64,000 nt of DNA from Zea mays (lineage: Eukaryota; Streptophyta; Magnoliopsida; Poales; Poaceae), in assembly GCF_902167145.1 (NCBI RefSeq), contig NC_050097.1:143741982-143805981 (forward strand), given 5' to 3'. The translations under genes and the position numbers were made by a program. The notes under the pieces were generated by a model. The model was not told the origin of the DNA. It saw only the letters and a list, made by a program, of their open reading frames with translations, and did not search any database. Shown here piece after piece: positions 5,717 to 59,777 of this stretch (its first letter is position 1; every line of letters begins with the position of its first letter).

Positions 5717-6274
5717 GTGGCGGTGAAGCGAATTCTTAGATATTTGGTTGCTACGCCTTGCTTCGGGCTCTGGTATCCAAAGGGGTCTACCTTTGACTTA
5801 GTTGGATACTCAGACTCCGACTATGCTGGATGTAAGGTCGATAGGAAGAGTACATCGGGGACGTGCCAATTCTTAGGAAGGTCCCTGGTGTCATGGAACT
5901 CTAAGAAACAAACTTCCGTTGCCCTATCCACCGCTGAGGCCGAGTATGTTGCCGCAGGACAGTGTTGCGCGCAACTACTTTGGATGAGGCAAACCCTCAG
6001 GGACTTTGGCTACAATCTGAGCAAAGTCCCACTCCTATGTGATAATGAGAGTGCTATCCGCATGGCGGAAAATCCTGTTGAACACAGCCGCACAAAGCAC
6101 ATAGACATCCGGCATCACTTTTTGAGAGACCACCAGCAAAAGGGAGATATCGAAGTGTTTTATGTTAGCACCGAGAACCAGCTAGCCGATATCTTCACTA
6201 AGCCTCTAGATGAGAAGACCTTTTGCAGGTTGCGTAGTGAGCTAAATGTCTTAGATTCGCGGAACCTGGATTGA
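5717..6274 (+). CDS. pol: Sirevirus Pol, second part: RNase H, in frame after the TGA
   Basis: It continues the same frame as the upstream pol after the TGA. The RNase H domain shows SYSDSDYAGC, ALSTAEAEYVAA and LLCDNESAI, which carry the acidic catalytic residues, then the copia tail [14 protein letters not shown] and [10 protein letters not shown]. It ends at TGA 6272-6274. RNase H degrades the RNA strand during cDNA synthesis. Without readthrough of the TGA the element would lack RNase H. Confidence 0.9.
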   Translation: MAVKRILRYLVATPCFGLWYPKGSTFDLVGYSDSDYAGCKVDRKSTSGTCQFLGRSLVSWNSKKQTSVALSTAEAEYVAAGQCCAQLLWMRQTLRDFGYNLSKVPLLCDNESAIRMAENPVEHSRTKHIDIRHHFLRDHQQKGDIEVFYVSTENQLADIFTKPLDEKTFCRLRSELNVLDSRNLD

Positions 6275-7072
6275 ATTGTAGCATACATGTAGTTATGCTT
6301 TTGATCATGTTCCTTTTTTGCATTATGTTGCTTATTATGGTGCTCAAGTTGTACAAACACTCCCTGGACCTCACAAGTCCGTTGCAAAGTGATGCACATG
6401 TTTAGGGGGAGATGTGTTACAACTTGACCCTTTGAGACTAACCTTGTGCTTGAGTTTGATAACTTAGTCTCGAAGGAGGATTGAAAGGGAAAAGGTGGAC
6501 TTGGATCATGAAAGACTTCCACTGCACTCCGATGAGAGGATAACTAATTCCAAGTTCATCTCATGAAATCTTATTGCCATTTGCTCTTAATTGAAGACTT
6601 TGGTGAGGCAATGAGGTTAAAAAGGCCAAGATTGATCCCGTTTTGGTGCTTGATGCCAAAGGGGGAGAAAATAAAGGCCAAAGTGATAAATGGATCAGCT
6701 ACCACTTGAGAGATTTTGAAAATAGTAGAATAGAGTTTTTGTTTTGTCAAAAGCTTTTATTGTCTCTTATTGTCTCTATTTTCAAAAGTTGGCTTCTTGT
6801 GGGGAGAAGTGTTGATTATGGGAAAAAGGGGGAGTTTTTGAAATCTTTGATCAATCTCTTTTGGAATGACTCTCTTTATACTTCAACATGTGTGTTTGAC
6901 TTAGAGATAGAGATTTGAGTTTGATTTGCAAAAACAAACCAAGTGGTGGCAAAGGATGATCCATATATGCCAAAATTGAATAAAACCAATTTGAGTTTTT
7001 ATTTAAAGTGATTTTGCACTTGTTCTAGTTGCTTTATATTGTGTTGGCATAAATCACCAAAAAGGGGGAGAT
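6275..7072 (+). other. Sirevirus 3' untranslated region with repeated polypurine tracts
   Basis: There is no convincing coding sequence. Three AGGGGGAGA-like purine tracts lie at about 6402-6413, 6658-6666 and 7059-7072. Only the last directly abuts the LTR and is the expected plus-strand primer. Multiple PPT copies are a described Sirevirus trait. A 91-codon open frame at 6643-6918 has no recognisable domain and I do not call it. Confidence 0.8.
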
Positions 7073-7320
7073 TGAAAGGGAAATGTGCCCTTGGGCCATT
7101 TCTAAGTATTTTGGTGATTGAGTGCAAACACAAGGGCCTAAATGTGAAAATATGCTCATGGATGAACAAAGTGTAAATCACAAGTAAAGGTATGTTTCTA
7201 AGCCTTAGTACATTAGTTTTGTGTACTAACATCTTGTCTAAGTGTTAGAAACAGGAGAAAGAAGAAAAGAAAAGAAGTGGAGAGTGGTTGTGTACAGCCA
7301 AAGGCTGCTTCGGGCTGGGG

Positions 7321-7680
7321 CACCGGACTGTCCGGTGTGCACCGGACAGTGTCTGGTGCGCTAGGCTGCCTCGGCCGAAGAGGCCGCTCTCGGGTTTTTC
7401 TCCGGCGACTTCGGCTAAAATTCACCGGACTGTCCGGTGTGCACCGGACTGTCCGGTGAGCCAACGGTCGGCCAGGGCCAACGGTCGGCCGCGCAATCCG
7501 CGCGGGACACGTGGCCGAGCCAACGGTCGGAAGACGGCACCGGACTGTCCGGTGTGCACCGGACATGTCCGGTGCGCCAACAGCGCCAGATCTGCCAACG
7601 GTCTGCAACGGTCGTCTTTGCCGTTTAAGGAAACAAATCGGGCACCGGACAGTGTCCGGTGTGCACCGGACTGTCCGGTG
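7321..7680. repeat. Array of CACCGGAC-N-GTCCGGTG palindromes in U3
   Basis: Eight perfect or near-perfect copies lie at 7321, 7340, 7423, 7442, 7538, 7557, 7643 and 7664. Most are CACCGGACTGTCCGGTG; some have a wider centre (ACAGTGTC or ACATGTC). They lie upstream of the TATA box and are candidate protein-binding sites in the LTR promoter. Confidence 0.9.
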
Positions 7681-34190: not shown

Positions 34191-35278
34191 AGCCAGCCTT
34201 CCCAAGTGCCACACATGTTGCTCAACACCAAACATCCCCTAAATACATATGGACATTTTTGACGACCAGCAAGGATGGACGGATCATTTGCTTGCTTGGG
34301 AAGAATCAAGACTCCAATTAAGTCCAGGGTGCACGTACACAAGTGGGCGCATGCAATGCAACGACCTCTAGCTCCGTTCCTTGTGCATCAGGAAATTCGG
34401 TCCACATCCGCTGGTCCGTCCGGTTCGGGTTCAGAGAGAGCACACGGGCTTCACAAAAATGAAGAAAACATGGGCATGGTCACTGGGGTCGTCGTCCACG
34501 TCCACCCATGCACATCCATCCTGTTGCCTTGCCTCTGGCAGCAAGCGAACAAGCCGCAGCGGAATGGCGGCGTCCCAACTAAACTTGAGAACAGAGTCAG
34601 CTTCTTGGACGGACACAATCACTATCGGTTATCTCTGATTATTCGATGAGCGCTAGAACTGAAGAAATTATTCGCAGGCCAACTTGCTGTCGAAGCTGCT
34701 CAGGCAGATGGCGAGGACCAGGAAGGCTGACACAGCGGGTATGCACTCCTCATCTCATCGTCAGCGTCACTCAATGCCTGGCCCCAGCTAACAATGCCAT
34801 TCCCTTGGCATGGCTGTGACAACGAGGCACTGCTGAATGAGTAGAATCTCTGGCTTGTTTTCCCTGCCACTGTAGGACTAGCTGCATTATGTGGTGTGCT
34901 GCTGGCTGAGTATCGTATATAACAAATTTTGTGCAAAGAAAATTTGACCTCAAGTCCAATGCAAAAGGCAAGAACATGTCAGATTAAAACACTGTAAGTT
35001 CTAAACAAAAAAAAAGATGAAGCTTATGAAGCTAGCTATGATACTGTAAGTTCTAAACATGTATTTCCGCCTCCCTTTTTCTATGGAACGCTGAGCCTGA
35101 TACTGTGCACAACTTACAAAGCATGGTGAACACACACAGAGGCCATTCGATAACAGCACAGCAATTGAATGGTTTATATAACTGTGCATATAGTTTTCAA
35201 AGAAACTAAAAATAACAGCATACTCGAATACTGGACAATGGTTTCCAATTTTGTGATGACCCTTAGTTGAAGTGTTCT
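34191..35278. other. Unassigned DNA left of the gag-only gypsy element
   Basis: No gene was recognised. A 16-bp phrase TACTGTAAGTTCTAAAC occurs twice (about 34989 and 35041). The last five bases, GTTCT, are the target duplication of the next element. Confidence 0.5.
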
Positions 35279-35530
35279 TGTTGGAAGCCAAAAAAGGCCG
35301 CGCGGACGGTCCGGCCCTGAGGCCGGACGGTCCGCGGTCCAGACTGTCCGCGGTGGTGGCGCAGACGGTCCGCGCGTGCACAGAGTCAGTTAGGGTTCCT
35401 AGTTTCTGGCACAGACGGTCCGCGCGTGCACAGAGTCAGTTAGGGTTCCTAGTTTCTCGCGGCATTTGTTACCTAAAACCGTGGGATTGACTCGAAAATC
35501 AGTTCGAAGCGGATCCAGACCTCCCCTTTA
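35279..35530 (+). repeat. 5' LTR of the gag-only gypsy element, upstream part
   Basis: It runs from TGTTGGAAGCC to CCCCTTTA, where the Helitron begins. It holds GCGGACGGTCCGC palindromes and a tandem 49-50 bp duplication at about 35361-35458 that is absent from the 3' LTR. Confidence 0.92.
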
Positions 35531-35776
35531 TCTCTACTAACTATTAAGAAGGCAGTGTAGACTGCCCCCGCCCACTACCGCACGCCCGCAGCGCACACTC
35601 CGTGAATCCCGCCGCGAAACGCCCGCCTCCCTATGCCACGAATCCCGCCGCTACCGCCCGCCCGCCCACGAGAACCGCCCGCCTCCCACCCGCAGCCCGC
35701 CCACACGCACACTTGCCCGCCGCACAGTTTCGTCTCCCTCCTCTCCGACCCTGACCACCGGCGCACAACGCGCGCC

Positions 35777-36241
35777 ATGGAGCCGGACGCGGATGAGGAC
35801 TACATGGGCGACCTCTCCCGCTTCCTCCCACCGAGTCCGTCCTCCTCCCCACCGAAGAATCTCGGGCGCCGGAAGCAGCCATCCACGCAGGCGCAGGCGC
35901 AGCCGAGGGCAAAGCGCGGGAAGGGGGTGTCGTGGCAGGAGCGGCGGCGGCAGGAGCGCGAGCGGAAGCAGCGGGAGGAGGACGCACGCACGATGGCCGG
36001 GCTCGCGGAAGCTATCCCTGAGAGCAACGTAGGGTTCAGGATGTTGAAGCAGATGGGGTACGATCCCGACTCCCGCGCCGACGCCGGCGCCGAACCGGTC
36101 AGCATCGAGATCCGCCGCTCGCGGGCGGGGCTCGGGGCGGAGGAGCCTGTGTTGGCTCTGACGCCGGCGCTGGCGCCGGTGGAGAAGCCCCGGGAGGTGT
36201 CGGAGCGGGAGCGTAGGCAGCAGGAGGAGATGGCAGCAGAG
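35777..36241 (+). pseudogene. Captured fragment of a G-patch protein (GPATCH11-like), N-terminal part
   Basis: The fragment starts with its own ATG (MEPDADEDYMGDLSRFLPP). A KGVSWQERRRQERERKQ basic helix follows, then a G-patch-like core NVGFRMLKQMGYDP and EIRRSRAGLGAEEP. It then runs into unrelated DNA after MAAELRE at about 36241. G-patch proteins usually stimulate DEAH helicases in RNA processing. About 155 codons remain open, and the frame continues through antisense methyltransferase sequence to 36436, making a chimeric reading frame. Function is doubtful. The parental gene should lie elsewhere. Confidence 0.8.
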
Positions 36242-36531
36242 CTAAGGGAAGACAGCCGAAACGGTCTCCCAGAACACTTGGTGCGCCTCGGGCGACCGGA
36301 TCTGGTAGCCGAGCAGCACCACGCCGCGCTCGGCGTCGGCGAGCGCATCCATGGCCGCGATGAGGTGCGGCACGGACTTCTGCACGTAGACCACGTCTGC
36401 GGTGACGACGAGATCGAAGCGGCACGGGGTGGCTAGCGTGGCGAGATGCGCGAGGCAGTTCCAGTGGAGCTGGGCGAGGCGAGGCGTGCGGGAGAGGTGG
36501 ACTCGGTTGCGCCGCAGGTTGCGACGGATTC
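36242..36531 (-). pseudogene. Captured METTL21-like methyltransferase, second exon
   Basis: The minus strand encodes GIRRNLRRNRVHLSRTPRLA, then FDLVVTADVVYVQKSVPHL and GVVLLGYQIRSPEAHQVFW. This is the post-SAM-binding half of a family-16 (METTL21-type) lysine methyltransferase. A clean splice acceptor CTTTACCCTTGCAG/G lies just upstream at 36532-36545. It ends at a stop at 36242-36244, where the G-patch fragment meets it. Its partner exon is at 38187-38457. Confidence 0.82.
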
Positions 36532-36638
36532 CCTGCAAGGGTAAAGCTAGATATACTTTTTACCCTGCACTTTTATCATTTGTCTCCTTAATTTATTTGA
36601 TTAAGGCGATTCTTCATTTTTTTGTATGCTTCTATGAG

Positions 36639-37280
36639 CAGAATATCATCCATGGAAGTGACAAAAGAATTTGATCCACAAAATCTCTTGGAGCTGTTCT
36701 CCATCTTTGCTATCAATTTGAGTAGTCCAACCAAGGATGTTCAGATTTTAACATTGAGGATTCTATCATATTTTGTGAAGATGGATCAACGTCTAATAAC
36801 GGATGAGGAGCGACCACACAAGAGGCAGAGAACAGAAGTTTCTGGAGAGGAAGCTGTTGCTAAATACGCTAATGTATGTCTTGTGAACTAATACTTTTAT
36901 TTGCTATTTTCCTGGCATGCCTCTAATGTTTCATTGAAATCAGGTTGTGGATATTCTTTTGATTATTGAGTCAATGCCAATTTCAGTATCTACTAGCCGT
37001 AAAATTTCTATCTTCATTTCTCGGATACAAATGAGTTTATCTTCCAAGATGGTTCATGATGATTACATACCTCCTCTCTTACATGGTATTATTGGCATAT
37101 TGTACAATATATTTAGTGATCTATGGCCACAAACACTGGATTGCCTTGCTGTTCTCATTAGAAAACACAAGGAGCTTGTTTGGGGTCAGTTTGTTCTGTT
37201 CATTGCAACTCACCAATCAAAAGGACTGACTGTGAAAAATCAGGAGAAGCTGGAAGCTGCAACCCAACCACAGTGTACGT
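36639..37280 (+). pseudogene. Captured fragment of UTP20 (U3 snoRNP protein), two exons with an intron
   Basis: An acceptor TGAGCAG/AATATC precedes an exon encoding FDPQNLLELFSIFAINLSS and LRILSYFVKMDQRL to about 36870. The intron GTATGTCTTG...GAAATCAG ends at about 36942. The next exon encodes IIESMPISVSTSRKISIF, HDDYIPPLLHGIIGILYN and CLAVLIRKHKELVWGQF, ending near the donor GTACGTATC at 37274. UTP20/DRIM is a HEAT-repeat protein of the small-subunit processome in ribosome assembly; the full protein exceeds 2500 residues, so this is a small internal piece. It lies antisense within the intron of the captured methyltransferase. Confidence 0.82.
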
Positions 37281-38186
37281 ATCTTCATTCTCAGTCAGAC
37301 AATCCAGAGTTTGTACTAACTGGTAACCGTTTATCTAATGTGTTTTTGTCATTGTTCTTCTAGAAACCCACATATTAAACAATCCGGAGCCTCTAATAAC
37401 CGTTTGCATGTGTCTTCATCCTCTACATGCACACATTTGTGCTTTGAATTGCTCTTTTCATGTCCTTTGCTGCTGTCTGGTCATATTCCTAATTCTGCTT
37501 AGAAGTTCTTGACACTTTATGGGTATTTTGTATCATATTTCAAATGGTGCATTTGCAGGCTGTGTGGATGTAATATTATTGCCAAACTATTGCCAGAAAA
37601 TTTGTCAGATAAGCTATGGCTCTGATGGCAAAGTTCTGATGTAATATGCATTTAGTTACAGCTGATGGTACATTTGAGGATACTGAAGTAGTGAAGTCTA
37701 ATCTTACCTTCTGAATTATCTACCTGTGCTGACTTTCTAACTTAGTGTTTTTCATCCTTTTACATTAAGAACAAATGAACAATAGTTTTGGGGTGAATAG
37801 AGAAACCCTGATTCATAAATGAACTGCAGTATTACAATAGTACATATAGTCTACGCCTAATGGGCTGGGCTCTAGGCCCATAACACACACAAGCAGCAAA
37901 TAGTTCCTTCTGTTCAACTCGGTTTACATATTGAAAAATTAATTTGTTGGTTTTCACATATTTGTGATTTACTTGTAATTGGTCTACATAAATGCTTTTT
38001 GTAAAATGCTTAGTAGTAATTTTGGAAAGCAACCGATTTGAAGCAGAAAGAGTTGATGATGTATCCTCATAATATTCTGATAATATCGAGTATTCTTGTA
38101 TCCATCCTCCTTTGGCTCTGTTTTTTCTTTTGTACTGTTGTTTCTTACTCCATGTTTGGTATTGCAGCTATTTTTGACTGCTTCAA
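37281..38186. other. Helitron interior between UTP20 and methyltransferase exon 1
   Basis: No clear coding segment. A short GCNIIAKLLPENLSDKLW-like stretch on the plus strand at about 37565-37625 may be a further UTP20 exon piece, at low confidence. Confidence 0.4.
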
Positions 38187-38457
38187 CGGGGGCGATGTCG
38201 GTGAGGCCGAGGCGGGAGAGGCCAAGTCCTGCCGGGCCGCACCCGGACCCGAGCTCCACGGCCCGAGTTCCCGGGAAGCGGGGCACGTCGGCAAAGGGGA
38301 GGGCCGGGTCGCGGATGCAGCGCTCGACGAACTTGACGAGGACCAGGGACGAGGGCCACACAGAGGTGCCCACCTCGAAGGAGTCGTTGTCCTGCTTGAA
38401 CATCAGCACCACGCCGCCGACCGGAAGCTCCACCACCGGAGACGCTGTGAACCGCAT
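38187..38457 (-). pseudogene. Captured METTL21-like methyltransferase, first exon
   Basis: The minus-strand ATG at 38457 gives MRFTASPVVELPVGG, then FEVGTSVWPSSLVLVKFVE and the SAM-binding motif AVELGSGCGPAGLGLSRLG, ending LTDIAP at a GTTGAAGC splice donor. It joins in phase to the acceptor at 36532. The open frame continues upstream of the ATG, but that part is not family-like. METTL21-type enzymes methylate lysines of chaperones or elongation factors. Both exons are open, yet the intron now contains antisense UTP20 sequence. Confidence 0.82.
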
Positions 38458-38879
38458 CTCCGCAGGCGGCCCGTGAAGACACTGAAGCGAAGCGACCAGA
38501 AAAGACAACCAACTGCAAACCCCAGGTACACCTGCACAGGAAGTACAGAACCCACCCCCATGGCTAGCATATAACGAGTAGGATTCTTTATTCCTTATTG
38601 ATCCTTTGGCCGACCACCAACCATAATTATCAGAAACAATTACATGACAAATTGCTTCATGATATGACGAACACAACCTTTTTATTTTAAAAGAAGAAAA
38701 GAGTACTGGCAAATGTTTAAAATATATCCAAAAACACGAACTGATGGGCGATGAAAAGAGGAAACAATGGGCGATGACAACACCGCAGCTGCTTTTCCTC
38801 TAAACCCCGAGTTAGGTAAGACGAGAGAGAGAGTCGAACACCCGGCGGGTGCTCTAAAACAAGATAAGTTTGTTTTTGG

Positions 38880-39579
38880 AGATGCATGCCTGATTACATA
38901 TTGCCAACTACCTTAGCTAAGGTTCCTAACTGTATGCCATTGTTGAGAAAAATATCTCTGAAGGGAAATTATCAGCTTTCTGATAATGGTTTGGTCACAA
39001 TCATCTCGACTGCACCTTCTTTATGTTCCATAAATCTGTGTGAGTGTTCTCTTCTCACTTAATCTGGAATTAATATTCTTGCAAACAAGTTACATTCAGT
39101 TCTTAGATAACTGTATATAGATGATTGCACAAACGTGGATGCTATGGCAATTCTTCCTGCTCCACAGAAGATTAATCATCTAGAGGTTTTGGCAATGTCT
39201 GGAATACAATCTGTGTGTGACAAGTTTGTGAAGGGGCTCATTCCTGTGCATGGTTCAAATCTGAAGGAGTTAGCATTTGCTGGTTGCTTGTAAGTCTTTG
39301 CATATTCCTACTTTAGGAAATAGTTTTCTTTTGGAAGTATTAGTACCATAGTTATATTACTATTATGCCAGTATTCAGAAGCAACATGGAACTGTATATC
39401 TGTCTTGCTATCTAATGTAGGGAACTTACCTCAACTTCCATCAAGACTGTTGGGGAATATTGTCAAGAATTAACTTCATTGGATCTCCGCAACTTGAATA
39501 GGCTGTGTGACCCAGCACTGTGGCATCTTCGTGGTTGTAGGCTACTAAGGAAACTAAGGCTTCAAAGAAACGCATTCAG
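38880..39579 (+). pseudogene. Captured RAD7-like leucine-rich-repeat protein fragment, two exons
   Basis: Exon 1 (about 38880-39289) encodes NCMPLLRKISLKGNYQLSDN, CSINLCECSLLT, DDCTNVDAMAILPAPQKI and NLKELAFAGC. The donor is TT/GTAAGTC and the acceptor is AATGTAG/G at 39420. Exon 2 (39421-39579) encodes LTSTSIKTVGEYCQELTSLD and CRLLRKLRLQRNAF, ending at CAG/GTATTG. Two in-frame stops break exon 1 (LLT/stop and VLR/stop). Cysteine-containing LRRs of this kind occur in rhp7/RAD7-type proteins linked to nucleotide excision repair and cullin ligases. Confidence 0.8.
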
Positions 39580-39930
39580 GTATTGCCCCACTTCCCCTGA
39601 TTTTTGTTGACTGATCCAAATTTGAAGTGCTTCATTACTAAGCAGAATTAAGTGTTGTGCAAACATTCATGTCCTTTTATGTCAATTTTTAATGTGTATC
39701 ATTGCATATTATTGTTTTCCAAACTCAGATGCATAATGATTATTATGCTTGTATTTTTAGCTTCTTTCTGGCATTCTAATCATTTGTCAATGCTAACTCA
39801 ATTGCCTTTTCTATTATGTTTGTGCATTGTACAAGTGCTGATTTTTTTCTCACTGATCGTAATGAGGGCCTGATAGTAATGTCATGACCCACAACTTAAT
39901 CACTTATAGAACTAGAGGATTTAGTTGCGA

Positions 39931-40170
39931 ATCCGGACAAGGTCGGTTAAGTAGATGTTGGCCGCTGCCGAACTTCTCGAGCACGGGGATGCAGTCAAGC
40001 AGGTGGTCGATGTCCCTAGCGTGGATGATGGTAGCGTAGAGTCCAATCTCCTAGAGGCAGGGGAACATGGCAGCGTAGCCCCGCGGGAGCGTGGCGGTGT
40101 CTGGGAAGCGCCAGAAGCCGAGGTAGAGGGTGCAGAGGGAGGCAAGGTGGAGGACGTTGATGAGGCAATT
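39931..40170 (-). pseudogene. Captured F-box/LRR-type protein fragment
   Basis: The minus strand encodes VNCLINVLHLASLCTLYLGF, then FPDTATLPRGYAAMFP, EIGLYATIIHARDIDHLLDC and PVLEKF, with one stop after FPCL. This resembles the LRR part of monocot F-box/FBD proteins. The fragment runs almost into the Helitron 3' terminus. Confidence 0.72.
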
Positions 40171-40174
40171 GACT

Positions 40175-40202
40175 CCGTAGCAACGCACGAGCATACACCT
40201 AG
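40175..40202 (+). other. Helitron 3' terminus with hairpin and CTAG
   Basis: CCGTAGCAACGCACGAGC followed by ATACACCTAG matches the conserved end of maize Helitrons (CCCGTTGCAACGCACGGG...CTAG). The stem has a mismatch. Confidence 0.85.
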
Positions 40203-40630
40203 TATAGATGAAGGGCAACGGCCGATTAAACCCCCAACAATCGACCAAATCAAGTCTATTTCTCGTTTTTACCTTATGCATTAGGAGTAGTTCTAGTCTA
40301 GTTCTAGTTTAGCCTCCCAATCCCCAAATTCTTCGCTTCTCTTCGGCTCTACGTCGATTAGAGGAGTTTAGGTCGGTCTGCCCGAGCCTAGACAACTCCT
40401 AGGATCTCTCCTCCCCGACGGGGTCCCTCCCGGGAGCGAGATCCAGGCGCCGCCGGCGACCCTTCGCCGCCCCTGCGCACGCGCGGACCGTCCGGCCCTA
40501 GGGCGCGGACCGTCCGACACGTCAGGCAGGGAACCCTAGCCCTGTGCCAGGTTGCGGACCGTCCGCGCTTGTGCAGAGAGCACCGCCACGGTTCTTGTTG
40601 AGTGTTTGGCGCCCAAAAAAGGTGTCAACA
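40203..40630 (+). repeat. 5' LTR of the gag-only gypsy element, downstream part
   Basis: It resumes with TATAGATGAAGG and ends AGGTGTCAACA. It aligns to 44154-44581 and contains CGGACCGTCCG palindromes. Confidence 0.92.
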
Positions 40631-43951: not shown

Positions 43952-44581
43952 TGTTGGAAGCCAAAAAGGCCGCGCGGACGGTCTGGCAATGAGGCCGGAT
44001 GGTTCGCGGTCCGGACTGTCCGCGGTGGTGGCGCGGACGGTCCACACGTGCACAGAGTCAGTTAGGGTTCCTAGTTTCTCGCGGGATTTGTTACCTAAAA
44101 CCGTGGGATTGACTCGGAAATCAGTTCGAAGCGGATCCAGACCTCCCCCTTTATATAGATGAAGGGCTACTGCCGATTAAACCCCCAACAATCGATCAAA
44201 TCAAGTCTATTTCTCGTTTTTACCTTATGCATTAGGAGTAGTTCTAGTCTAGTTCTAGTTTAGCCTCCCAATACCCAAATTCTTTGATTCTCTTCGGCTC
44301 TACGTCGATTAGAGGAGTTTAGGTCAGTCTACCCGAGCCTAGACAACTCCTAGGATCTCTCCTCCTCGACGGGGTCCCTCCCGGGAGCGAGATCAAGGCG
44401 CCGCCGGCGACCCTTCGCCACCCCTGCGCACGCGCGGACCATCTGGCCCCAGGGCACAGACCGTTCGGCACGTTAGGCAGGGAACCCTAGCCCTGTGCCA
44501 GGTCGCGGACCGTCCGCGCCTGTGCAGAGAGCACCACCACGGTTCTTGTTAAGTGTTTGGCGCCCGAAAAAGGTGTCAACA
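43952..44581 (+). repeat. 3' LTR of the gag-only gypsy element (630 bp, uninterrupted)
   Basis: TGTTGGAAGCC...GGTGTCAACA. It contains the intact TATA site that the Helitron split in the other LTR. Confidence 0.93.
44150..44159 (+). promoter_or_regulatory. TATA box of the gypsy 3' LTR (intact counterpart of the Helitron target)
   Basis: TTTATATAGA follows a C-rich stretch. In the 5' LTR the Helitron lies between TTTA and TATAGA. Confidence 0.65.
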
Positions 44582-44586
44582 GTTCT

Positions 44587-46231: not shown

Positions 46232-48914
46232 TGTAACACCCCAGGTTCCACAAACAACCCAGAATGCTACTGAACTACACTTCTGACGTCCATATATAAA
46301 ATTTCGGCAGCATCCCCTTTGCAAGATTGCATAAATAAGGGGGCAACAGGTTATAAACATATATCATGACCAAAAACATACTAAGTATTATTAATCGGCT
46401 AGCAAGGGAAGATAAACGTACGACCTGAACTGAATTAATCAGTGTGCACGTCTATATAAAAAACAAACTTCCCTTGACAATAAGTTTCTAATTAAATCAT
46501 GGCTGCGCCTGGGCAGCGTTATTGTGAGAGTGTAAGTGGACGTGCTGCTACTCCCCTCATTCCCAACATGTATCAAGTACCTGCATTGAGTAATGCAAGA
46601 GTGAGATGACATATCTCAGCAAGTAAAATATTATCAAACTATTCAACCACATAAGAACATTGTTTTACCACCACCTGATTCCACCACCTTCTTATTACCA
46701 AGATGCAGCACGTATACAACGTACAACACACCTAGTTACCACACCTCGCAGGTAGAAACCACAATAGTAACATAGTAATGTCACACTTCATATATTCCTC
46801 ATGAATGCAAATGTCTGCAAATGCAAGGATGACTTCTGCCTTCATACCTCTAAGGATATGAAGCCGCATCGTACCCCTCCTCGGGCAACATACGATGCTA
46901 AAAAAATGTACCGGTACGGTCGGACCATAAGATCACGACATAACTTCAAAATGCAAGATGGATGATGCGATGTGCATGTCATGCCTACAACACTTCATAT
47001 AACGTGATTCAAAAAGACACTTCAACTTCATCCAAGATGGGAATCAACCACATATATCATAACCAAATTATGATCATCCACAATATTAGACAATTGAGAA
47101 TTAATACTTCCAAACAAATAAACTTCATCATAGAATTCAATGATTAACATAATTAAAAACTTATGCATACTCAATGACAGGGAATAGGATGCAAACCAAA
47201 CGGTAGCAACCACCACTATATTTACTTGCCTTTACCGGAAGTTCGGGCAAATCCCTAAGTACGATCCGGAAGTCCACCACCTGTTTTTGACACACAACTT
47301 AGTGCACCAATTTCACATAACCAGGCTCATAAACGACGCCGCACCTACGCACAAACTCAAACCCCGCCACGGGTTACATCTCTCCCCACACCCACCAAAC
47401 TGTAGCGGCGCTGCTTAATAATTTCATAACTTCAAAATTATGACAGCATTGGTAACAAACAAAAACTCCAGAGGCATCTACATAAAATTCCCCACAAGTT
47501 TTGTATACAATTTATAATTAAATTCCAACATCTAATTAGCCCAAAACAGTTCACAAGTTGAACCCTGTAATCTGTTTTTTTCTCTTTTGGACAGCGACAT
47601 ACCCGGATTCAAACAGCGATATCTTTTAAAATATAATTCCAATTCAAGCGCATAAGTACTCATTGGAAAGATAGGACAAAGCCATACATGATTATCATAC
47701 TGGTTAGCACTAATTAACCACGAAAAATTCCCAGAAACTGCTAATACTACTGCTGTTCACCCACCTGAAAAATCTGTTTTTTTGGACAGCAACATACCCG
47801 GATTTAAACGACGATATCTCCTAAATTATAACTCCGAATCGAGCGCATAAGTACTCGTTGGAAAGGTATGACAAAGCTCTACATGATTATCCCACGGATT
47901 CTCACTAATTACCCCACGAAAATTCCCAGAAACTGCTAATACTACTGCTGTTCACCCACCTGAAAAATCTGTTTTTTTGGACAGCAACATACCCGGATTC
48001 AAACGACGATATCTCCTAAATTATAACTCCGAATCGAGCGCATAAGTACTCGTTGGAAAGGTATGACAAAGCTCTACATGATTATCCCACTGATTCCCAC
48101 TAATTACCCCACGAAAATTCCCAGAAACTGCTAATACTACTGCTGTTCACCTACCTGAAAAATCTGTTTTTTTGGACAGCAACATACCCGGATTCAAACG
48201 ACGATATCTCCTAAATTATAACTCCGAATCGAGCGCATAAGTACTCGTTGGAAAGGTATGACAAAGCTCTACATGATTATCCCACTGATTCCCACTAATT
48301 ACCCCACGAAAATTCCCAGAAATCCCTAGAACTACTGCTGTTCACCCACTCACAAAATTCCTGGACAGCACCTCTACCGATTCGCAAAGATAAACACATA
48401 ATCCAATTGATTGCAGCACAAAAACAACAAAAGTTAATCACAAATTCACCTTAGGTTCTTCCCTTACTCCTTCCTTCTTCCTCCCTCCAAACTCCAATTA
48501 AGATCGCAGCCACACGACGGAGAACCACACGGGAGGGCTGCACCTTGGGAGGAGGGGAAGAAATGGGGGGGCAGCTAGGGTTTTGGGTGGTGAGGGCTGC
48601 AAATGTTTGAGGAGGAAGAAGATGTGAGAGGGGGGGGGGGCGTCCAAGAGAAAGGGGAGGGGAAGCGGCGGCTGCAACAACAAAAGGGGGAAAAAGGGGG
48701 GGGGGGCGGCTAGGGTTAGGGGAGGGTTAGTGGGCCGAATTGCGATTCGCGGCCCAACTCGCTTGCACGACAGCTCCCGACCAACCACCCTACTGCTATA
48801 CTGGTGAATGTTTTCCACAAATTCTAAATCCCCAAAGCGCGACACCCGAATAAGAGAAAAAACAAACAAAAAGAATAACCTTCAACTTCTCTTCTTTGCA
48901 AACCGGGTATCACA
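46232..48914 (-). repeat. 3' LTR of the non-coding LTR element
   Basis: The plus strand is TGTAACACCCCAGG...GGGTATCACA. It includes a 195-bp tandem repeat and G-runs near 48628-48710. Confidence 0.93.
47572..48358. repeat. 195-bp tandem repeat in the LTR
   Basis: Units begin with CTGTTTTTTTGGACAGC at 47774, 47969 and 48164 (exact 195-bp spacing), preceded by a more diverged unit at 47572 and followed by a partial unit. Units carry CGACGATATCTCC, CGTTGGAAAGGTATGACAAA and TACTACTGCTGTTCACC. Confidence 0.93.
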
Positions 48915-53079: not shown

Positions 53080-55761
53080 TGTAACACCCCAGGTTCCACA
53101 AACAACCCAGAATGCTACTGAACTACACTTCTGACGTCCATATATAAAATTTCGGCAGCATCCCCTTTGCAAGATTGCATAAATAAGGGGGCAACAGGTT
53201 ATAAACATATATCATGACCAAAAACATACTAAGTATTATTAATCGGCTAGCAAGGGAAGATAAACGTACGACCTGAACTGAATTAATCAGTGTGCACGTC
53301 TATATAAAAAACAAACTTCCCTTGACAATAAGTTTCTAATTAAATCATGGCTGCGCCTGGGCAGCGTTATTGTGAGAGTGTAAGTGGACGTGCTGCTACT
53401 CCCCTCATTCCCAACATGTATCAAGTACCTGCATTGAGTAATGCAAGAGTGAGATGACATATCTCAGCAAGTAAAATATTATCAAACTATTCAACCACAT
53501 AAGAACATTGTTTTACCACCACCTGATTCCACCACCTTCTTATTACCAAGATGCAGCACGTATACAACGTACAACACACCTAGTTACCACACCTCGCAGG
53601 TAGAAACCACAATAGTAACATAGTAATGTCACACTTCATATATTCCTCATGAATGCAAATGTCTGCAAATGCAAGGATGACTTCTGCCTTCATACCTCTA
53701 AGGATATGAAGCCGCATCGTACCCCTCCTCGGGCAACATACGATGCTAAAAAAATGTACCGGTACGGTCGGACCATAAGATCACGACATAACTTCAAAAT
53801 GCAAGATGGATGATGCGATGTGCATGTCATGCCTACAACACTTCATATAACGTGATTCAAAAAGACACTTCAACTTCATCCAAGATGGGAATCAACCACA
53901 TATATCATAACCAAATTATGATCATCCACAATATTAGACAATTGAGAATTAATACTTCCAAACAAATAAACTTCATCATAGAATTCAATGATTAACATAA
54001 TTAAAAACTTATGCATACTCAATGACAGGGAATAGGATGCAAACCAAACGGTAGCAACCACCACTATATTTACTTGCCTTTACCGGAAGTTCGGGCAAAT
54101 CCCTAAGTACGATCCGGAAGTCCACCACCTGTTTTTGACACACAACTTAGTGCACCAATTTCACATAACCAGGCTCATAAACGACGCCGCACCTACGCAC
54201 AAACTCAAACCCCGCCACGGGTTACATCTCTCCCCACACCCACCAAACTGTAGCGGCGCTGCTTAATAATTTCATAACTTCAAAATTATGACAGCATTGG
54301 TAACAAACAAAAACTCCAGAGGCATCTACATAAAATTCCCCACAAGTTTTGTATACAATTTATAATTAAATTCCAACATCTAATTAGCCCAAAACAGTTC
54401 ACAAGTTGAACCCTGTAATCTGTTTTTTTCTCTTTTGGACAGCGACATACCCGGATTCAAACAGCGATATCTTTTAAAATATAATTCCAATTCAAGCGCA
54501 TAAGTACTCATTGGAAAGATAGGACAAAGCCATACATGATTATCATACTGGTTAGCACTAATTAACCACGAAAAATTCCCAGAAACTGCTAATACTACTG
54601 CTGTTCACCCACCTGAAAAATCTGTTTTTTTGGACAGCAACATACCCGGATTTAAACGACGATATCTCCTAAATTATAACTCCGAATCGAGCGCATAAGT
54701 ACTCGTTGGAAAGGTATGACAAAGCTCTACATGATTATCCCACGGATTCCCACTAATTACTTCACGAAAATTCCCAGAAACTGCTAATACTACTGCTGTT
54801 CACCCACCTGAAAAATCTGTTTTTTTGGACAGCAACATACCCGGATTCAAACGACGATATCTCCTAAATTATAACTCCGAATCGAGCGCATAAGTACTCG
54901 TTGGAAAGGTATGACAAAGCTCTACATGATTATCCCACTGATTCCCACTAATTACCCCACGAAAATTCCCAGAAACTGCTAATACTACTGCTGTTCACCT
55001 ACCTGAAAAATCTGTTTTTTTGGACAGCAACATACCCGGATTCAAACGACGATATCTCCTAAATTATAACTCCGAATCGAGCGCATAAGTACTCGTTGGA
55101 AAGGTATGACAAAGCTCTACATGATTATCCCACTGATTCCCACTAATTACCCCACGAAAATTCCCAGAAATCCCTAGAACTACTGCTGTTCACCCACTCA
55201 CAAAATTCCTGGACAGCACCTCTACCGATTCGCAAAGATAAACACATAATCCAATTGATTGCAGCACAAAAACAACAAAAGTTAATCACAAATTCACCTT
55301 AGGTTCTTCCCTTACTCCTTCCTTCTTCCTCCCTCCAAACTCCAATTAAGATCGCAGCCACACGACGGAGAACCACACGGGAGGGCTGCACCTTGGGAGG
55401 AGGGGAAGAAATGGGGGGGCAGCTAGGGTTTTGGGTGGTGAGGGCTGCAAATGTTTGAGGAGGAAGAAGATGTGAGAGGGGGGGGCGTCCAAGAGAAAGA
55501 GGAGGGGAAGCGGCGGCTGCAACAACAAAAGGGGGAAAAAGGGGGGGGGGGGGCGGCTAGGGTTAGGGGAGGGTTAGTGGGCCGAATTGCGATTCGTGGC
55601 CCAACTCGCTTGCACGACAGCTCCCGACCAACCACCCTACTGCTATACTGGTGAATGTTTTCCACAAATTCTAAATCCCCAAAGCGCGACACCCGAATAA
55701 GAGAAAAAACAAACAAAAAGAATAACCTTCAACTTCTCTTCTTTGCAAACCGGGTATCACA
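53080..55761 (-). repeat. 5' LTR of the non-coding LTR element
   Basis: Nearly identical to 46232-48914 at an offset of 6848; the 195-bp repeat units lie at 54420, 54622, 54817 and 55012. Confidence 0.93.
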
Positions 55762-55766
55762 AGACA

Positions 55767-56307
55767 TTAATAGTGCACGATTTCTTTCCTTGTTTGGCGA
55801 AGCCAACCGTTGCACCCGCGGTCCCCTTGGCACACCGGACAGTCCGGTGCGGCATAGTGACCGTTGGCTCTAGCCACTCGTTGCCCCGTTGATTGCGCGC
55901 TGGTCGCGCTGCCAACCGTTGGTGCGGACGCTGTTGGCTCACCGGACAGTCTGGTGAATTTTATCCGCAGTGTCCTTGGCGATTCCCGAGAGCAGCGAGT
56001 TCGTCGCTGAGCTAGTCTGGGCACCGGACAGTGTCCGGTGCACTCGCAGCTGGTGCAATACTGGCTGTTTCAGCTGAACTCCTTTTGCTCCTTTTGGACT
56101 TGACTTAATTGAGTTCCTGACACTTAGACAAGCATGTTTAGCACATAAAACAATTGACTAAGTGTCTAGAACTTACCATCATACTTGATCCATCTAGATA
56201 TATCTTCATATACCTTGGCTCAACTTTATGTTAGTTCACACATAGTGTGTTGTGCATCTAATCACCAAAACAATATAGAAATGGCCCAAGGGCACATTTC
56301 CCTTTCA
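55767..56307 (-). repeat. 3' LTR of Sirevirus 2, part B (U3)
   Basis: It contains CACCGGACAGTCCGGTG (55833-55849) and further decayed palindromes. It ends in ...GCACATTTCCCTTTCA, the reverse complement of a Sirevirus LTR start. It resumes right after the AGACA duplication. Confidence 0.88.
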
Positions 56308-57108
56308 ATCTCCCCCTTTTTGGTGATTTATGCCAACACATTAAAAAGCAACTCATTTCGAACTAACATATCTAGAAGAGCTCAAAAATGCAAATTGAAG
56401 ACCAATAAGATTTTCAAGGAATTTGGCATATTTGGATCACTTTTGCCACCACTTGGTTTATTTTCAAAAAACAAATTCTTTTTCCTATCTCTATGTCAAA
56501 CACACTTGTTTTGGCAAATCAAGAGATCTTTCAAGAGTAAACTTGATCAAATGCCAAAAACTCCCCCTTTTCCCTTACTCAAATTTCTCCCCCACAAGAG
56601 AACAGTTTTTGCATTAAGAGGGTTTTGATCAAATGCAAAGAGTCTAACTCTACAATTTTTTAAATTCACAAGTGGTTGGCTGATCCATTTGCTTTGGCCT
56701 TAATCTCTCCCCTTTGGCATTAAGCACCAAAACAGGAGAACTTTTGGCCCTTTGAACCCCATTGCTTCACCAAAATGTCAAATAAGAGCAAAAAGGCAAA
56801 TGAGAGCACAAATAAGAACTTGGGACGAGATACATTGATACCAGAATGCAGTGGAAGCCCTTTCTTTGTCCAAGTTCACTTTTCCTTTCAATACAACTTT
56901 GAGACTATATCAAGAGTACTCAACAACCAAGTTAGTCTTAAAGGAGTCAAGTTGTAGACATCCTCCCCCTAAACATGTGCATCATTTGCATAAGGACTGG
57001 TGAGGTCCGGGGATGACTTGTACAACTTGAGCACCAAAAATAAGCAATTAAAGACATCAATGCTTAAAGTAACATGATCAAAGGCATAGAACACATGTAT
57101 GCTATAGA
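56308..57108 (-). other. PPT and 3' UTR of Sirevirus 2
   Basis: AAAAAGGGGGAGAT on the minus strand touches the LTR. Further purine tracts lie at 56566-56572, 56704-56711 and 56961-56968, as in Sirevirus 1. No gene. Confidence 0.8.
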
Positions 57109-58542
57109 TCAATCCAAGTTACGTGAATCCAAGACATTTAGCAAACTACGCAACCTGCAAAACCTTTTCACATCTAAAGGCTTGGTGAAGATATCAGCTA
57201 GGTGGTTCTCGGTGCTAATATGGTAAATATCGATATCTCCCCTTTGCTGGTGGTCTCTCAAAAAGTGATGTCGGATGTCTATGTGCTTAGTGCAGCCGTG
57301 TTCAACAGGATTACCCGCCAAGCGAATTGCACTCTTATTATCACATAGGAGTGAGACTTTGCTCAGATTGTAGCAAAAGTCCTGGAGGGTTTGCCTCATC
57401 CAAAGCAGTTGCGCGCAACACTGTCCTATGGCAACATACTCGGCCTCAACGGTGAATAGGGCAATAGAAGTTTGTTTCTTAGAGCTCCAAGACATCTGGG
57501 ACCTTCCCAGAAATTGACAAGTCCCTGATGTGTTCTTCCTATCAACCTTGCATCCGGCATAGTCGGAATCTAAGTATCCGATTAAGTCAAAGGTAGACCC
57601 CTTTGGATACCAGATCCCGAAGCAAGGCATAGAAACCAAATATCTAAGAATTCGCTTAACGGCCACAAGGTGACACTCCTTAGGGTCGGATTGAAATCTA
57701 GCACACATGCATACACTTAGCATAATATCCGTTTTACTAGCACAAAGATAATACAAAGATGCTATCATAAACCGGTATGCCTTTTGATCAACGGACTTAC
57801 CTCCTTTGTTGAGGTTCATATGTCTATATATTCCCATTGGTGTCTTTGCGGTCTTTGCATCCTTCACCCCAAACCTCTTGAGCAAATATTGAGTATACTT
57901 TGTTTGGGAGATGAAGGTTCCTTCCTTGAGTTGCTTCACTTGAAATCCAAGGAAGTAGTTCAACTCGTCCATCATTGACATTTCAAATTTCTGCATCATC
58001 ACCTTGTTAAACTCCCCACAAGACTTTTGATTAGTAGAACCAAATATTATGTCATCAACATATATTTGGCATACAAAGAGATCACCATTACAAGTCTTAG
58101 TAAAGAGAGTAGGATCAGCTTTCCCAACCTTGAAAGCATTAGAAATAAGGAAATCTCTAAGGCATTCATACCATGCTCTTGGGGCTTGCTTAAGTCCATA
58201 GAGTGCCTTAAAGAGCTTGTAGACGTGGTGGGGATACCTGTCATCTTCAAAGCTAGGGGGTTGTTCCACATACACTTCCTCCTTGATTGGTCCGTTAAGG
58301 AAGGCGCTCTTCACGTCTATTTGAAACAACTTAAAAGAGTGGTGAGCAGCATAGGCTAGTAATATTCGAATTGATTCTAGCCTAGCTATAGGAGCAAAAG
58401 TCTCCTCAAAATCCAAACTTGCGACTTGGGGATAACCTTTTGCCACAAGTCGAGCCTTGTTTCTTGTCACCACACCGTGTTCATCTTTCTTGTTACGAAA
58501 CACCCACTTGGTTCCCACAACATTTTGCTTCAGACGCGGCAC
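57109..58542 (-). CDS. pol: Sirevirus 2 Pol: reverse transcriptase and RNase H (477 codons open)
   Basis: The open frame begins within the RT N-terminus ([10 protein letters not shown]), contains [19 protein letters not shown] and the catalytic YVDDIIFGS, and runs through [14 protein letters not shown] into RNase H ([29 protein letters not shown]). The RNase H DNES motif reads DNKS here and the TAEAEY motif reads TVEAEY, so E-to-K and other changes may weaken activity. Upstream (58543-58803) the linker has stops, including one at the EVW position. It is a broken polyprotein, not a free gene. Confidence 0.85.
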
Positions 58543-59777
58543 TAGGCTTCAAACTTCATTTCTCTTGAAGTTGTTGAGCTCTTTCTGCATGGCCAACACC
58601 CAGTCTAGATCCTACATGGCTTCTTCTACCCTGAAAGGATCAATAGAAGAAACAAACGAGTAGTGCTCACAAAAATTAGCTAAACGTGAGTGAGTGGTTA
58701 CTCCCTTGTTGATATCACCTAGAATCTGATCCACTGGATGATTTCTTTGAATTGTCATCTAGACTTGAGTTGGAGGAGCTTGTGGTGCTTCTTCCTCCTT
58801 ATCCTATTCTTCATGTGCTTCCCCTTGATCCAGCCCTTCATCTTGAGGTACCTGTTCTTCATCTTGAATTGGGGGATGCACCATTGTAGAGGAGAAAGGT
58901 TGATCTTGCTCTTGTTGTTCCTGTGGTCGCACATCACCTATCGCCATTGTTCGCATTGCGGCCGTCGGAACCTCATTGTCATCTACATCATCAAGATCAA
59001 CTTGCTCTCTTGGAGAGCCATTAGTCTCATCAAATACAACGTCGCTAGAGACCTCAACTAATCCTAATGACTTGTTGAAGACCCTATACTCCTTTGTATT
59101 TGAGTCATAACCTAGTAAAAACCCTTCTACAACTTTGGGAGCAAACTTCGAATGCCTACCTTTCTTTACCAAGATGTAGCATTTTCTCATAAATACACGA
59201 AAATAGGAAACATTGGGTTTGTTACCGGTTAGGAGTTCGTATGATGTCTTCTTAAGGAGGCGATGCAGATAGAGCCGGTTTATGGCATGGCAAGCTGTAT
59301 TCACAGCTTCCGACCAAAACTGCTCAGTCATCTTGTACTCTCCAAGCATTGTCCTTGCCATATCAATTAGCATCATGTTCTTCCTCTCTACTACACCATT
59401 TTGCTGTGGTGTGTAGGGAGTGGAGAACTCGTGCTTGATGCCTTCGTCCTCAAGATACTCTTTGACTTGAAGGTTCTTGAACTTAGATCTGTTGTCGCTT
59501 CTTATCTTTTTCACCTTTAGCTCAAACCCAATTTGAGCTCTTCTTAAGAAGCGCTTTAGAGTTCCTTGGGTTTCAAATTTATCCTGCAAAAAGAAAACCC
59601 AAGTGAAGCGGGAAAAAATCATCAACAATAACAAGACCATACTTACTTACCCCGATGCTAAGATAAGCAACGGGCCCGAAGAGATCCATATGTAGGAGTT
59701 ACACTGGTCTTAATGTTGACATCACGTTCTTGCTTTGATGATTGCTTTCCACCTTCTTCCCTGCCTAGCATGCTGCA
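58543..59777 (-). pseudogene. Sirevirus 2 integrase and linker, broken
   Basis: From 59777 leftward on the minus strand: the HHCC region end (CQAGKK-like), [13 protein letters not shown] with the first Asp, then an open stretch 59640-58804. That stretch has [29 protein letters not shown] (second Asp kept, neighbouring Gly and Glu changed), [14 protein letters not shown] (catalytic Glu), NGSPREQV and a Gln/Glu-rich linker ending at a stop. Frame breaks near 59640 and stops in 58543-58803 make it non-functional. Confidence 0.82.

What the first reader, a model, noticed from the sequence alone, without database searches (positions are those of the whole stretch)
35531..40202. Helitron with at least five captured gene fragments
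One 4.7-kb Helitron carries pieces of G-patch, METTL21-like, UTP20, RAD7-like and F-box/LRR genes on both strands, some with introns and splice signals. Such mosaics could give chimeric transcripts or antisense RNA against five parent genes, three of them linked to RNA or ribosome biology.
Basis: partly seen in the sequence, partly recalled or inferred. Interest (0 to 1): 0.88.

Follow-up and report, generated by a model that had tools for sequence, protein, structure and literature searches.

The report
Maize Helitron carrying five gene fragments
This is an ordinary maize rolling-circle transposon that picked up pieces of five host genes one after another, including one piece inserted inside another; sister copies in the same genome show the steps, and the copied pieces look like decaying passengers.

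Summary
Confirmed. 35531-40202 is a complete 4,672-bp non-autonomous HelA-type Helitron in a maize-like genome. Its empty site lies in the window: the sister LTR (43952-44581) of the host retrotransposon. Five fragments: G-patch (+), METTL21 (-), UTP20 (+), RAD7-like (+), FBD/F-box LRR (-). Parents of four are at C1, C6, C3 and C1; the F-box parent was not found. UTP20 lies inside METTL21. Of seven related copies examined, three have RAD7 and F-box but none of the other pieces, two add G-patch and uninterrupted METTL21, and UTP20 is in the window copy and one C3 fragment. The four junctions that could be tested carry 2-3 bp microhomology, fitting break repair or template switching. RAD7 and F-box stops are shared by three copies and changes between copies show little constraint (few changes). 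So the anatomy is right, but function is unsupported: one transcript cannot be antisense to all five, two rather than three parents are RNA/ribosome genes, and such Helitrons are well described. By-product: the NCBI maize 'METTL21A' protein is encoded inside the C5 sister Helitron.

The parts
35531..40202 (+). Complete non-autonomous HelA-type Helitron, 4,672 bp
   Evidence: Published end patterns matched; empty site in sister LTR; complete sister element on C5
35531..35548 (+). 5' terminus TCTCTACTAACTATTAAG, preceded by host A
   Evidence: identical 18 bases in the C5, C1:226 and C3:200 Helitrons
40175..40202 (+). 3' terminus CCGTAGCAACGCACGAGCATACACCTAG, followed by host T
   Evidence: fits the 3' model in PMC3288121 and PMC2267711; one base differs in the C5, C1:226 and C3:200 copies
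35777..36247 (+). G-patch (GPATCH11-like) fragment, 157 codons from the native ATG
   Evidence: Pfam PF01585; 94.9% to maize protein P0122; parent locus C1:192.37 Mb, DNA match from 35717
35777..36436 (+). Chimeric ORF of 219 codons: G-patch then antisense METTL21
   Evidence: also 219 codons in the C5 copy, 203 with another frame in the C7 copy
36245..36526 (-). METTL21 fragment, 3' half
   Evidence: PF10294; tblastn; parent locus C6:176.02 Mb with an open 224-aa frame
36527..38184 (+). UTP20 fragment inserted inside METTL21: exons 36527-36540, 36642-36873, 36944-37274, 38168-38184 with three GT-AG introns
   Evidence: spliced frame open; parent gene C3:8.77 Mb with flanking UTP20 exons in order
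38185..38499 (-). METTL21 fragment, 5' half
   Evidence: PF10294; tblastn
38880..39579 (+). RAD7-like LRR fragment: 38880-39289, intron 39290-39420, 39421-39579; two in-frame stops in the first exon
   Evidence: 95.6% over 137 aa to maize P0241; parent locus C1:212.78 Mb; stops shared by three copies
39970..40158 (-). FBD-associated F-box LRR fragment with one stop at 40051-40053
   Evidence: PF24758 E 1.4e-12; stop shared by three copies
35279..35530 (+). Host retrotransposon 5' LTR, left part
   Evidence: aligned to LTR 43952-44581; TSD GTTCT at 35274-35278
40203..40630 (+). Host retrotransposon 5' LTR, right part
43952..44581 (+). Sister LTR without the Helitron: the empty site
   Evidence: TSD GTTCT at 44582-44586

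Best explanation
A non-autonomous maize HelA Helitron inserted, without target duplication, between A and T of a TATA-like stretch in the 5' LTR of a retrotransposon. It was built stepwise: an ancestor carrying RAD7 and F-box pieces gained G-patch and METTL21 pieces, then a UTP20 piece was inserted into METTL21, replacing 11 bp. Shown: termini, empty site, parents of four fragments, sister elements lacking the later pieces, 2-3 bp microhomology at four junctions. Inferred: the order of steps (parsimony); the junctions were made by microhomology-mediated break repair or template switching; mobility was supplied in trans by an autonomous Helitron; the pieces evolve without strong constraint.
For: Ends and empty site. 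Fragment identities. Parents. Sister elements: C5 (3,523 bp, complete) and C7 lack UTP20 and have METTL21 uninterrupted; C1:226, C3:200 and C9:157 have RAD7 and F-box with no G-patch, METTL21 or UTP20 match at E 1e-6. Window (UTP20 left out) vs C5 2940/2997 identical, vs C7 2886/2977. Microhomology 3, 2, 3, 3 bp; sum of 11 or more in 0.16% of 200,000 random-breakpoint trials. None of 10 large ORFs matched a Rep/helicase family.
Against: The 3' hairpin is not significant by folding. The C5 copy has T, not A, before its 5' end, and the C7 copy lacks the first bases of the 5' end. In a C3:208 fragment the UTP20 piece begins within 3 bp of the window's left boundary but is joined there to a different sequence, which a single simple insertion does not explain. 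F-box parent not found (searches unanswered). dN/dS rests on few changes and one copy pair is at 0.50. Four junctions are a small sample.
Confidence: 0.93

Rival explanations
1. The Helitron is a functional chimeric gene: the 219-codon G-patch/antisense-METTL21 ORF, or a spliced mosaic transcript, makes a useful protein or antisense RNA.
For: The ORF begins at the native G-patch ATG and stays open at 219 codons in the window and C5 copies; four protein clusters from JGI/ENA data (P0121, P0123, P0183, P0222) have the same junction. Maize Helitrons can be transcribed and spliced (abstract and passages of PMC4528327).
Against: C7 copy has another frame; between copies dN/dS is 0.50, 1.39 and 0.68 for G-patch and 1.68 and 1.28 for two METTL21 pairs, the third (window-C5) having 6 changes with dS 0; RAD7 and F-box pieces have stops; strands are mixed; the host LTR TATA-like stretch is split.
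Confidence: 0.05
2. Fragments were gained by 3' end bypass (read-through of the terminator into flanking genes), as shown experimentally for the bat element Helraiser.
For: Helraiser captures flanking DNA when the hairpin is bypassed (passages of PMC4778049); the weak 3' hairpin here would favour it.
Against: UTP20 lies inside METTL21, and G-patch/METTL21 lie upstream of RAD7/F-box, while the last 35 bp are 94-97% alike in the older-type sisters. End bypass adds at the 3' end.
Confidence: 0.1
3. A single native locus or tandem array with these exons in this order, not a transposon.
For: None found. The G-patch and RAD7 parents are both on C1, but about 20 Mb apart.
Against: Parents on C1 (two places), C3 and C6; empty site in sister LTR.
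Confidence: 0.01
4. The UTP20 piece entered first in another Helitron (the C3:208 type) and reached the window copy by recombination within METTL21, rather than by direct insertion into METTL21.
For: C3:208 has UTP20 plus the METTL21 5' half joined to a different left partner at nearly the same UTP20 boundary; UTP20 differs less (10 of 1655) than METTL21 (9 of 497) between the two copies, Fisher P 0.024.
Against: Across the METTL21 5' half, window and C3:208 agree at 488/497, window and C5 at 484/497; but C3:208 and C5 agree at 487/497, so the grouping is weak. METTL21 is G+C-rich and may simply mutate faster (inference).
Confidence: 0.2

Closest known systems
Maize HelA Helitrons (Dong et al. 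2011, PMC3288121; Du et al. 2008, PMC2267711)
   Same: Same 5' and 3' end patterns, A|T target, non-autonomous, multiple gene fragments, stepwise gain and loss between related elements
   Different: A combination of fragments that my paper searches did not find; one capture is nested inside another, and parent and sister DNA resolve the junctions to the base
ZmhelA3/ZmhelA2 series (PMC3288121)
   Same: A shorter element and a longer one differing by an internal captured piece (section read)
   Different: There the 1,366-bp piece is placed at the 25 bp of the 5' terminus; here 1,658 bp went into an earlier captured gene fragment
Helraiser (bat Helitron, PMC4778049)
   Same: TC...CTAG ends and gene capture (passages)
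   Different: Its demonstrated capture is 3' read-through, which does not explain internal capture here

Membership tests
Helitron (maize HelA) | 5' TC with HelA consensus | tested here: met
   the 19-base Methods pattern misses by one base, the consensus with 'T or none' is met
Helitron (maize HelA) | 3' CTAG with HelA consensus | tested here: met
Helitron (maize HelA) | Insertion between A and T, no target duplication | tested here: met
   Sister LTR as empty site
Helitron (maize HelA) | Palindrome/hairpin near the 3' end | tested here: inconclusive
   CG...AA...CG spacing is met, folding z 0.42; PMC2575219 reports no obviously strong 3' hairpin in 16 of 35 maize elements (passage)
Helitron (maize HelA) | Other copies with the same termini | tested here: met
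   C5, C1:226 and C3:200 share the 18-base 5' end and, but for one base, the 3' end; C7 and C9 have a 3' end that fits a looser pattern, C7 has a damaged 5' end and for C9 none was found
Autonomous Helitron | Rep/helicase protein | tested here: not met
   No such Pfam match in 10 large ORFs (67 ORFs of 40 aa or more overlap the stretch, and not all were scanned)
Pack-MULE or CACTA | Terminal inverted repeats and target duplication | tested here: not met
   No target duplication; ends TCTC... and ...CTAG are not inverted copies

The most novel reading that the evidence does not exclude
Helitron gene capture in maize can proceed by microhomology-mediated repair or template switching inside the element: the window copy and its sisters are before-and-after pairs in which a 1.66-kb UTP20 piece replaced 11 bp of an earlier captured gene with 3 and 2 bp microhomology, and a 478-bp loss in the same copy has 3 bp.
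Probability: 0.55. Interest if true: 0.4.

Novelty: new member of a known kind. Interest (0 to 1): 0.25.

Why it matters
Helitrons are known to shuffle maize gene pieces, but how the pieces get in is debated. Here four parents and intermediate elements are in one genome, so junctions can be read base by base. They argue for internal, microhomology-guided capture over end read-through, at least for UTP20. It also shows an annotation hazard: a named maize protein (METTL21A, 203 aa) and a partial G-patch protein are encoded inside sister Helitrons.

Tried and rejected
I first read METTL21 as two exons with a GT-AG intron holding UTP20 (queries joined the halves on that basis). One search showed that the supposed acceptor is a UTP20 exon (DSLQG), and the C6 parent and C5/C7 copies have METTL21 uninterrupted, so the intron reading was dropped. 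I first took P0001 (NCBI maize METTL21A) as the parent; it is 100% identical to an ORF inside the C5 Helitron, and the parent is on C6. A viral-contig scan with P0121 found no relative. Paper searches for Helitron with UTP20, or with G-patch plus methyltransferase plus chimeric, found 0 papers; a looser search (at least 3 of 6 terms) listed 3 that I did not open. Helitron plus microhomology plus capture gave 23 papers, 10 listed, of which I saw passages of one, and these did not show its microhomology passage, so I make no claim that microhomology at captures is unreported. In my notes I wrote 'about 15 bp' and 'about 475 bp'; the calls give 11 bp and 478 bp.

Gaps: F-box parent not found; window 38185-38869 was not searched in the genome; no RNA data; no second maize line. 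In one search only 40 of 694 first-look candidates were scored, so further copies may exist. The LTR date uses a substitution rate that I recalled (1.3e-8 per site per year). METTL21 copy-parent dN/dS was computed without a gap at the 5-residue deletion, so those values are rough.
Full report
What it is. The stretch 35531-40202 starts with TCTCTACTAACTATTAAG after a host A and ends with CCGTAGCAACGCACGAGCATACACCTAG before a host T. These are the ends given for maize HelA Helitrons (passages of PMC2267711; Results part 1 of 2 of PMC3288121). In the whole window the 3' patterns and my 5' pattern occur once each, at these ends; a looser 5' pattern has one more match on the minus strand at 20085. 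In 100 letter-shuffled windows the looser 5' pattern occurred 0.02 times and the 3' pattern 0.28 times per window; the longer 3' pattern occurred in none of 100 dinucleotide shuffles.

Empty site. The element sits in the 5' LTR of a retrotransposon: 35279-35530 plus 40203-40630 align to the sister LTR 43952-44581, 595 of 631 compared sites identical, with the same 5-bp duplication GTTCT outside both LTRs. The sister LTR reads CCTTTA|TATAGATG at the insertion point, so no target duplication is seen. K2P 0.060 gives about 2.3 million years for the retrotransposon at a recalled rate, an upper limit for the Helitron. The site lies in a TATA-like stretch TTTATATAG, so the insertion probably disabled that LTR promoter (inference).

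Fragments. G-patch, 35777-36247 (+): PF01585 E 7.5e-8, 94.9% to a maize protein. METTL21 (-), in two halves, 38499-38185 and 36526-36245: PF10294 E 4.4e-8 and 2.6e-9, PDB relatives METTL21A/B/D and a plant methyltransferase. UTP20, 36527-38184 (+): four exon pieces with three GT-AG introns read as one open frame; four UTP20 proteins match its two long exons at 57-83%, while PDB matches to UTP20 alone were weak, E 0.026-0.11. RAD7-like, 38880-39579 (+): 95.6% over 137 aa to maize P0241, with two stops; in the PDB the best match was F-box/LRR-repeat protein 2 (E 4e-13), with a RAD7 chain at 0.0056, so the RAD7-like name rests on the plant proteins. F-box LRR, 40158-39970 (-): PF24758 E 1.4e-12 when read across one stop, below the cut-off when the two sides were searched apart.

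Parents. The genome search places the window at C2:143741982-143805981 of a 2.18-Gb genome. Contig lengths and protein names fit maize (the species is inferred). G-patch parent: C1:192.37 Mb. METTL21 parent: C6:176.02 Mb, open 224-aa frame. UTP20 parent: C3:8.77 Mb, with upstream and downstream UTP20 exons in order. RAD7 parent: C1:212.78 Mb, 99.8% to P0241 residues 1-585. The F-box search did not complete. So no single native locus with this order was found, and four parents lie apart.

History. Three older-type elements (C1:226.2, 5,472 bp; C3:200.8, 5,506 bp; C9:157.6, 5' end not found) carry RAD7 and F-box pieces and about 2.7 kb more before a nearly identical 3' end, with no G-patch, METTL21 or UTP20 match at E 1e-6. 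Two elements (C5:187057814-187061336, 3,523 bp; C7:27.51 Mb, 5' end damaged next to a TA repeat) carry G-patch, uninterrupted METTL21, RAD7 and F-box and lack that 2.7 kb. Apart from the parent, the window copy and a C3:208.22 Mb fragment were the only long UTP20 matches among 22; in C3:208 UTP20 is joined to the METTL21 5' half, 2,153 bp at 99.1%. The window copy also lost 478 bp beside RAD7. Window (UTP20 left out) vs C5 is 2940/2997 identical, vs C7 2886/2977, C5 vs C7 3391/3476. The order of steps is parsimony over these seven copies. Further partial matches exist in the 47 rows and 11 rows and were not all examined.

Junctions. With parent and sister DNA four junctions can be read: G-patch/METTL21 3 bp (GGG), METTL21/UTP20 3 bp (GGA), UTP20/METTL21 2 bp (AC), and the 478-bp loss 3 bp (GGA); UTP20 replaced 11 bp of METTL21 as found in C5. 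With random breakpoints in the same sequences, one junction has 3 bp or more in 5-6% of trials and the four sum to 11 or more in 0.16% of 200,000 trials. Junctions at RAD7's right side and F-box were not tested. This fits repair or template switching inside the element. The 3' read-through shown for Helraiser (passages of PMC4778049) does not explain a piece inside an earlier piece. An oddity: in C3:208 the UTP20 piece starts within 3 bp of the same boundary but next to a different sequence.

Function. Two RAD7 stops and one F-box stop are shared by window, C5 and C7 copies. G-patch dN/dS between copies is 0.50, 1.39 and 0.68, against 0.28-0.43 for copy-parent pairs; METTL21 5' half gives 1.68 and 1.28, and window vs C5 has 6 changes with dS 0, against 0.47-0.48 for copy-parent pairs (the latter rough, see gaps). 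Numbers are small, but nothing points to strong constraint after capture. The 219-codon ORF is kept in C5 and changed in C7. With G-patch, UTP20 and RAD7 on one strand and METTL21 and F-box on the other, one transcript cannot be antisense to all five. Maize Helitrons can be transcribed and alternatively spliced (abstract and passages of PMC4528327), so chimeric RNA is possible but untested here.

Place among known things. HelA elements carry 0-12 fragments, mean 3, and 82.1% carry 1-5 (section read); stepwise capture was proposed from similar comparisons (section read); maize has over 22,000 annotated Helitrons, half of them within other elements (passages of PMC8547701). This is a new, well-resolved member of a known kind.

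Noticed in passing
L009:6997-7605 (C5:187059996-187060604): The NCBI protein 'protein N-lysine methyltransferase METTL21A [Zea mays]' (P0001, 203 aa) is 100% identical to an ORF inside the C5 sister Helitron; it ends at the METTL21/G-patch junction and lacks 5 internal and 30 C-terminal residues of P0002. A locus on C6 has the full 224-aa frame.
   Followed up: yes
L010:1141-1605 (C7): NCBI 'uncharacterized protein, partial [Zea mays]' (P0124) is 100% identical to the G-patch piece inside the C7 sister Helitron.
   Followed up: yes
L021:3928-6080 (C3:208222927-208225079): UTP20 plus METTL21 5' half joined on the left to a different, G+C-rich sequence at nearly the same UTP20 boundary, and cut on the right by what looks like another Helitron 5' end.
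   Followed up: partly
window 37784-37895: Part of the third UTP20 intron has 19 short matches elsewhere in the genome, so it may hold a small repeat that is also in the parent gene.
   Followed up: no
window 46232-48914 and 53080-55761: 2.7-kb direct repeats 99.6% alike, starting TGTAACACC and ending in CA, each with about four 195-bp tandem units: probably a very young LTR element.
   Followed up: no
window 3605-7557 and 55830-59776: 4-kb inverted relatives about 80% alike, perhaps coding parts of two related retrotransposons.
   Followed up: no
window 35357-35457: A 50-bp tandem duplication in the 5' LTR of the host element that the sister LTR lacks.
   Followed up: no
grass chromosomes (protein records): The G-patch and RAD7 relatives show the same longest-contig length in maize, Miscanthus, Urochloa humidicola, two Paspalum species, Eleusine, Eragrostis and Stipagrostis records, but not in Digitaria, so the two parents may be linked across grasses; in this genome they are about 20 Mb apart.
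   Followed up: no
window 20085 (minus): A lone Helitron 5'-end-like sequence TCTCTATTACTATAAAG without a strict 3' partner in the window.
   Followed up: no
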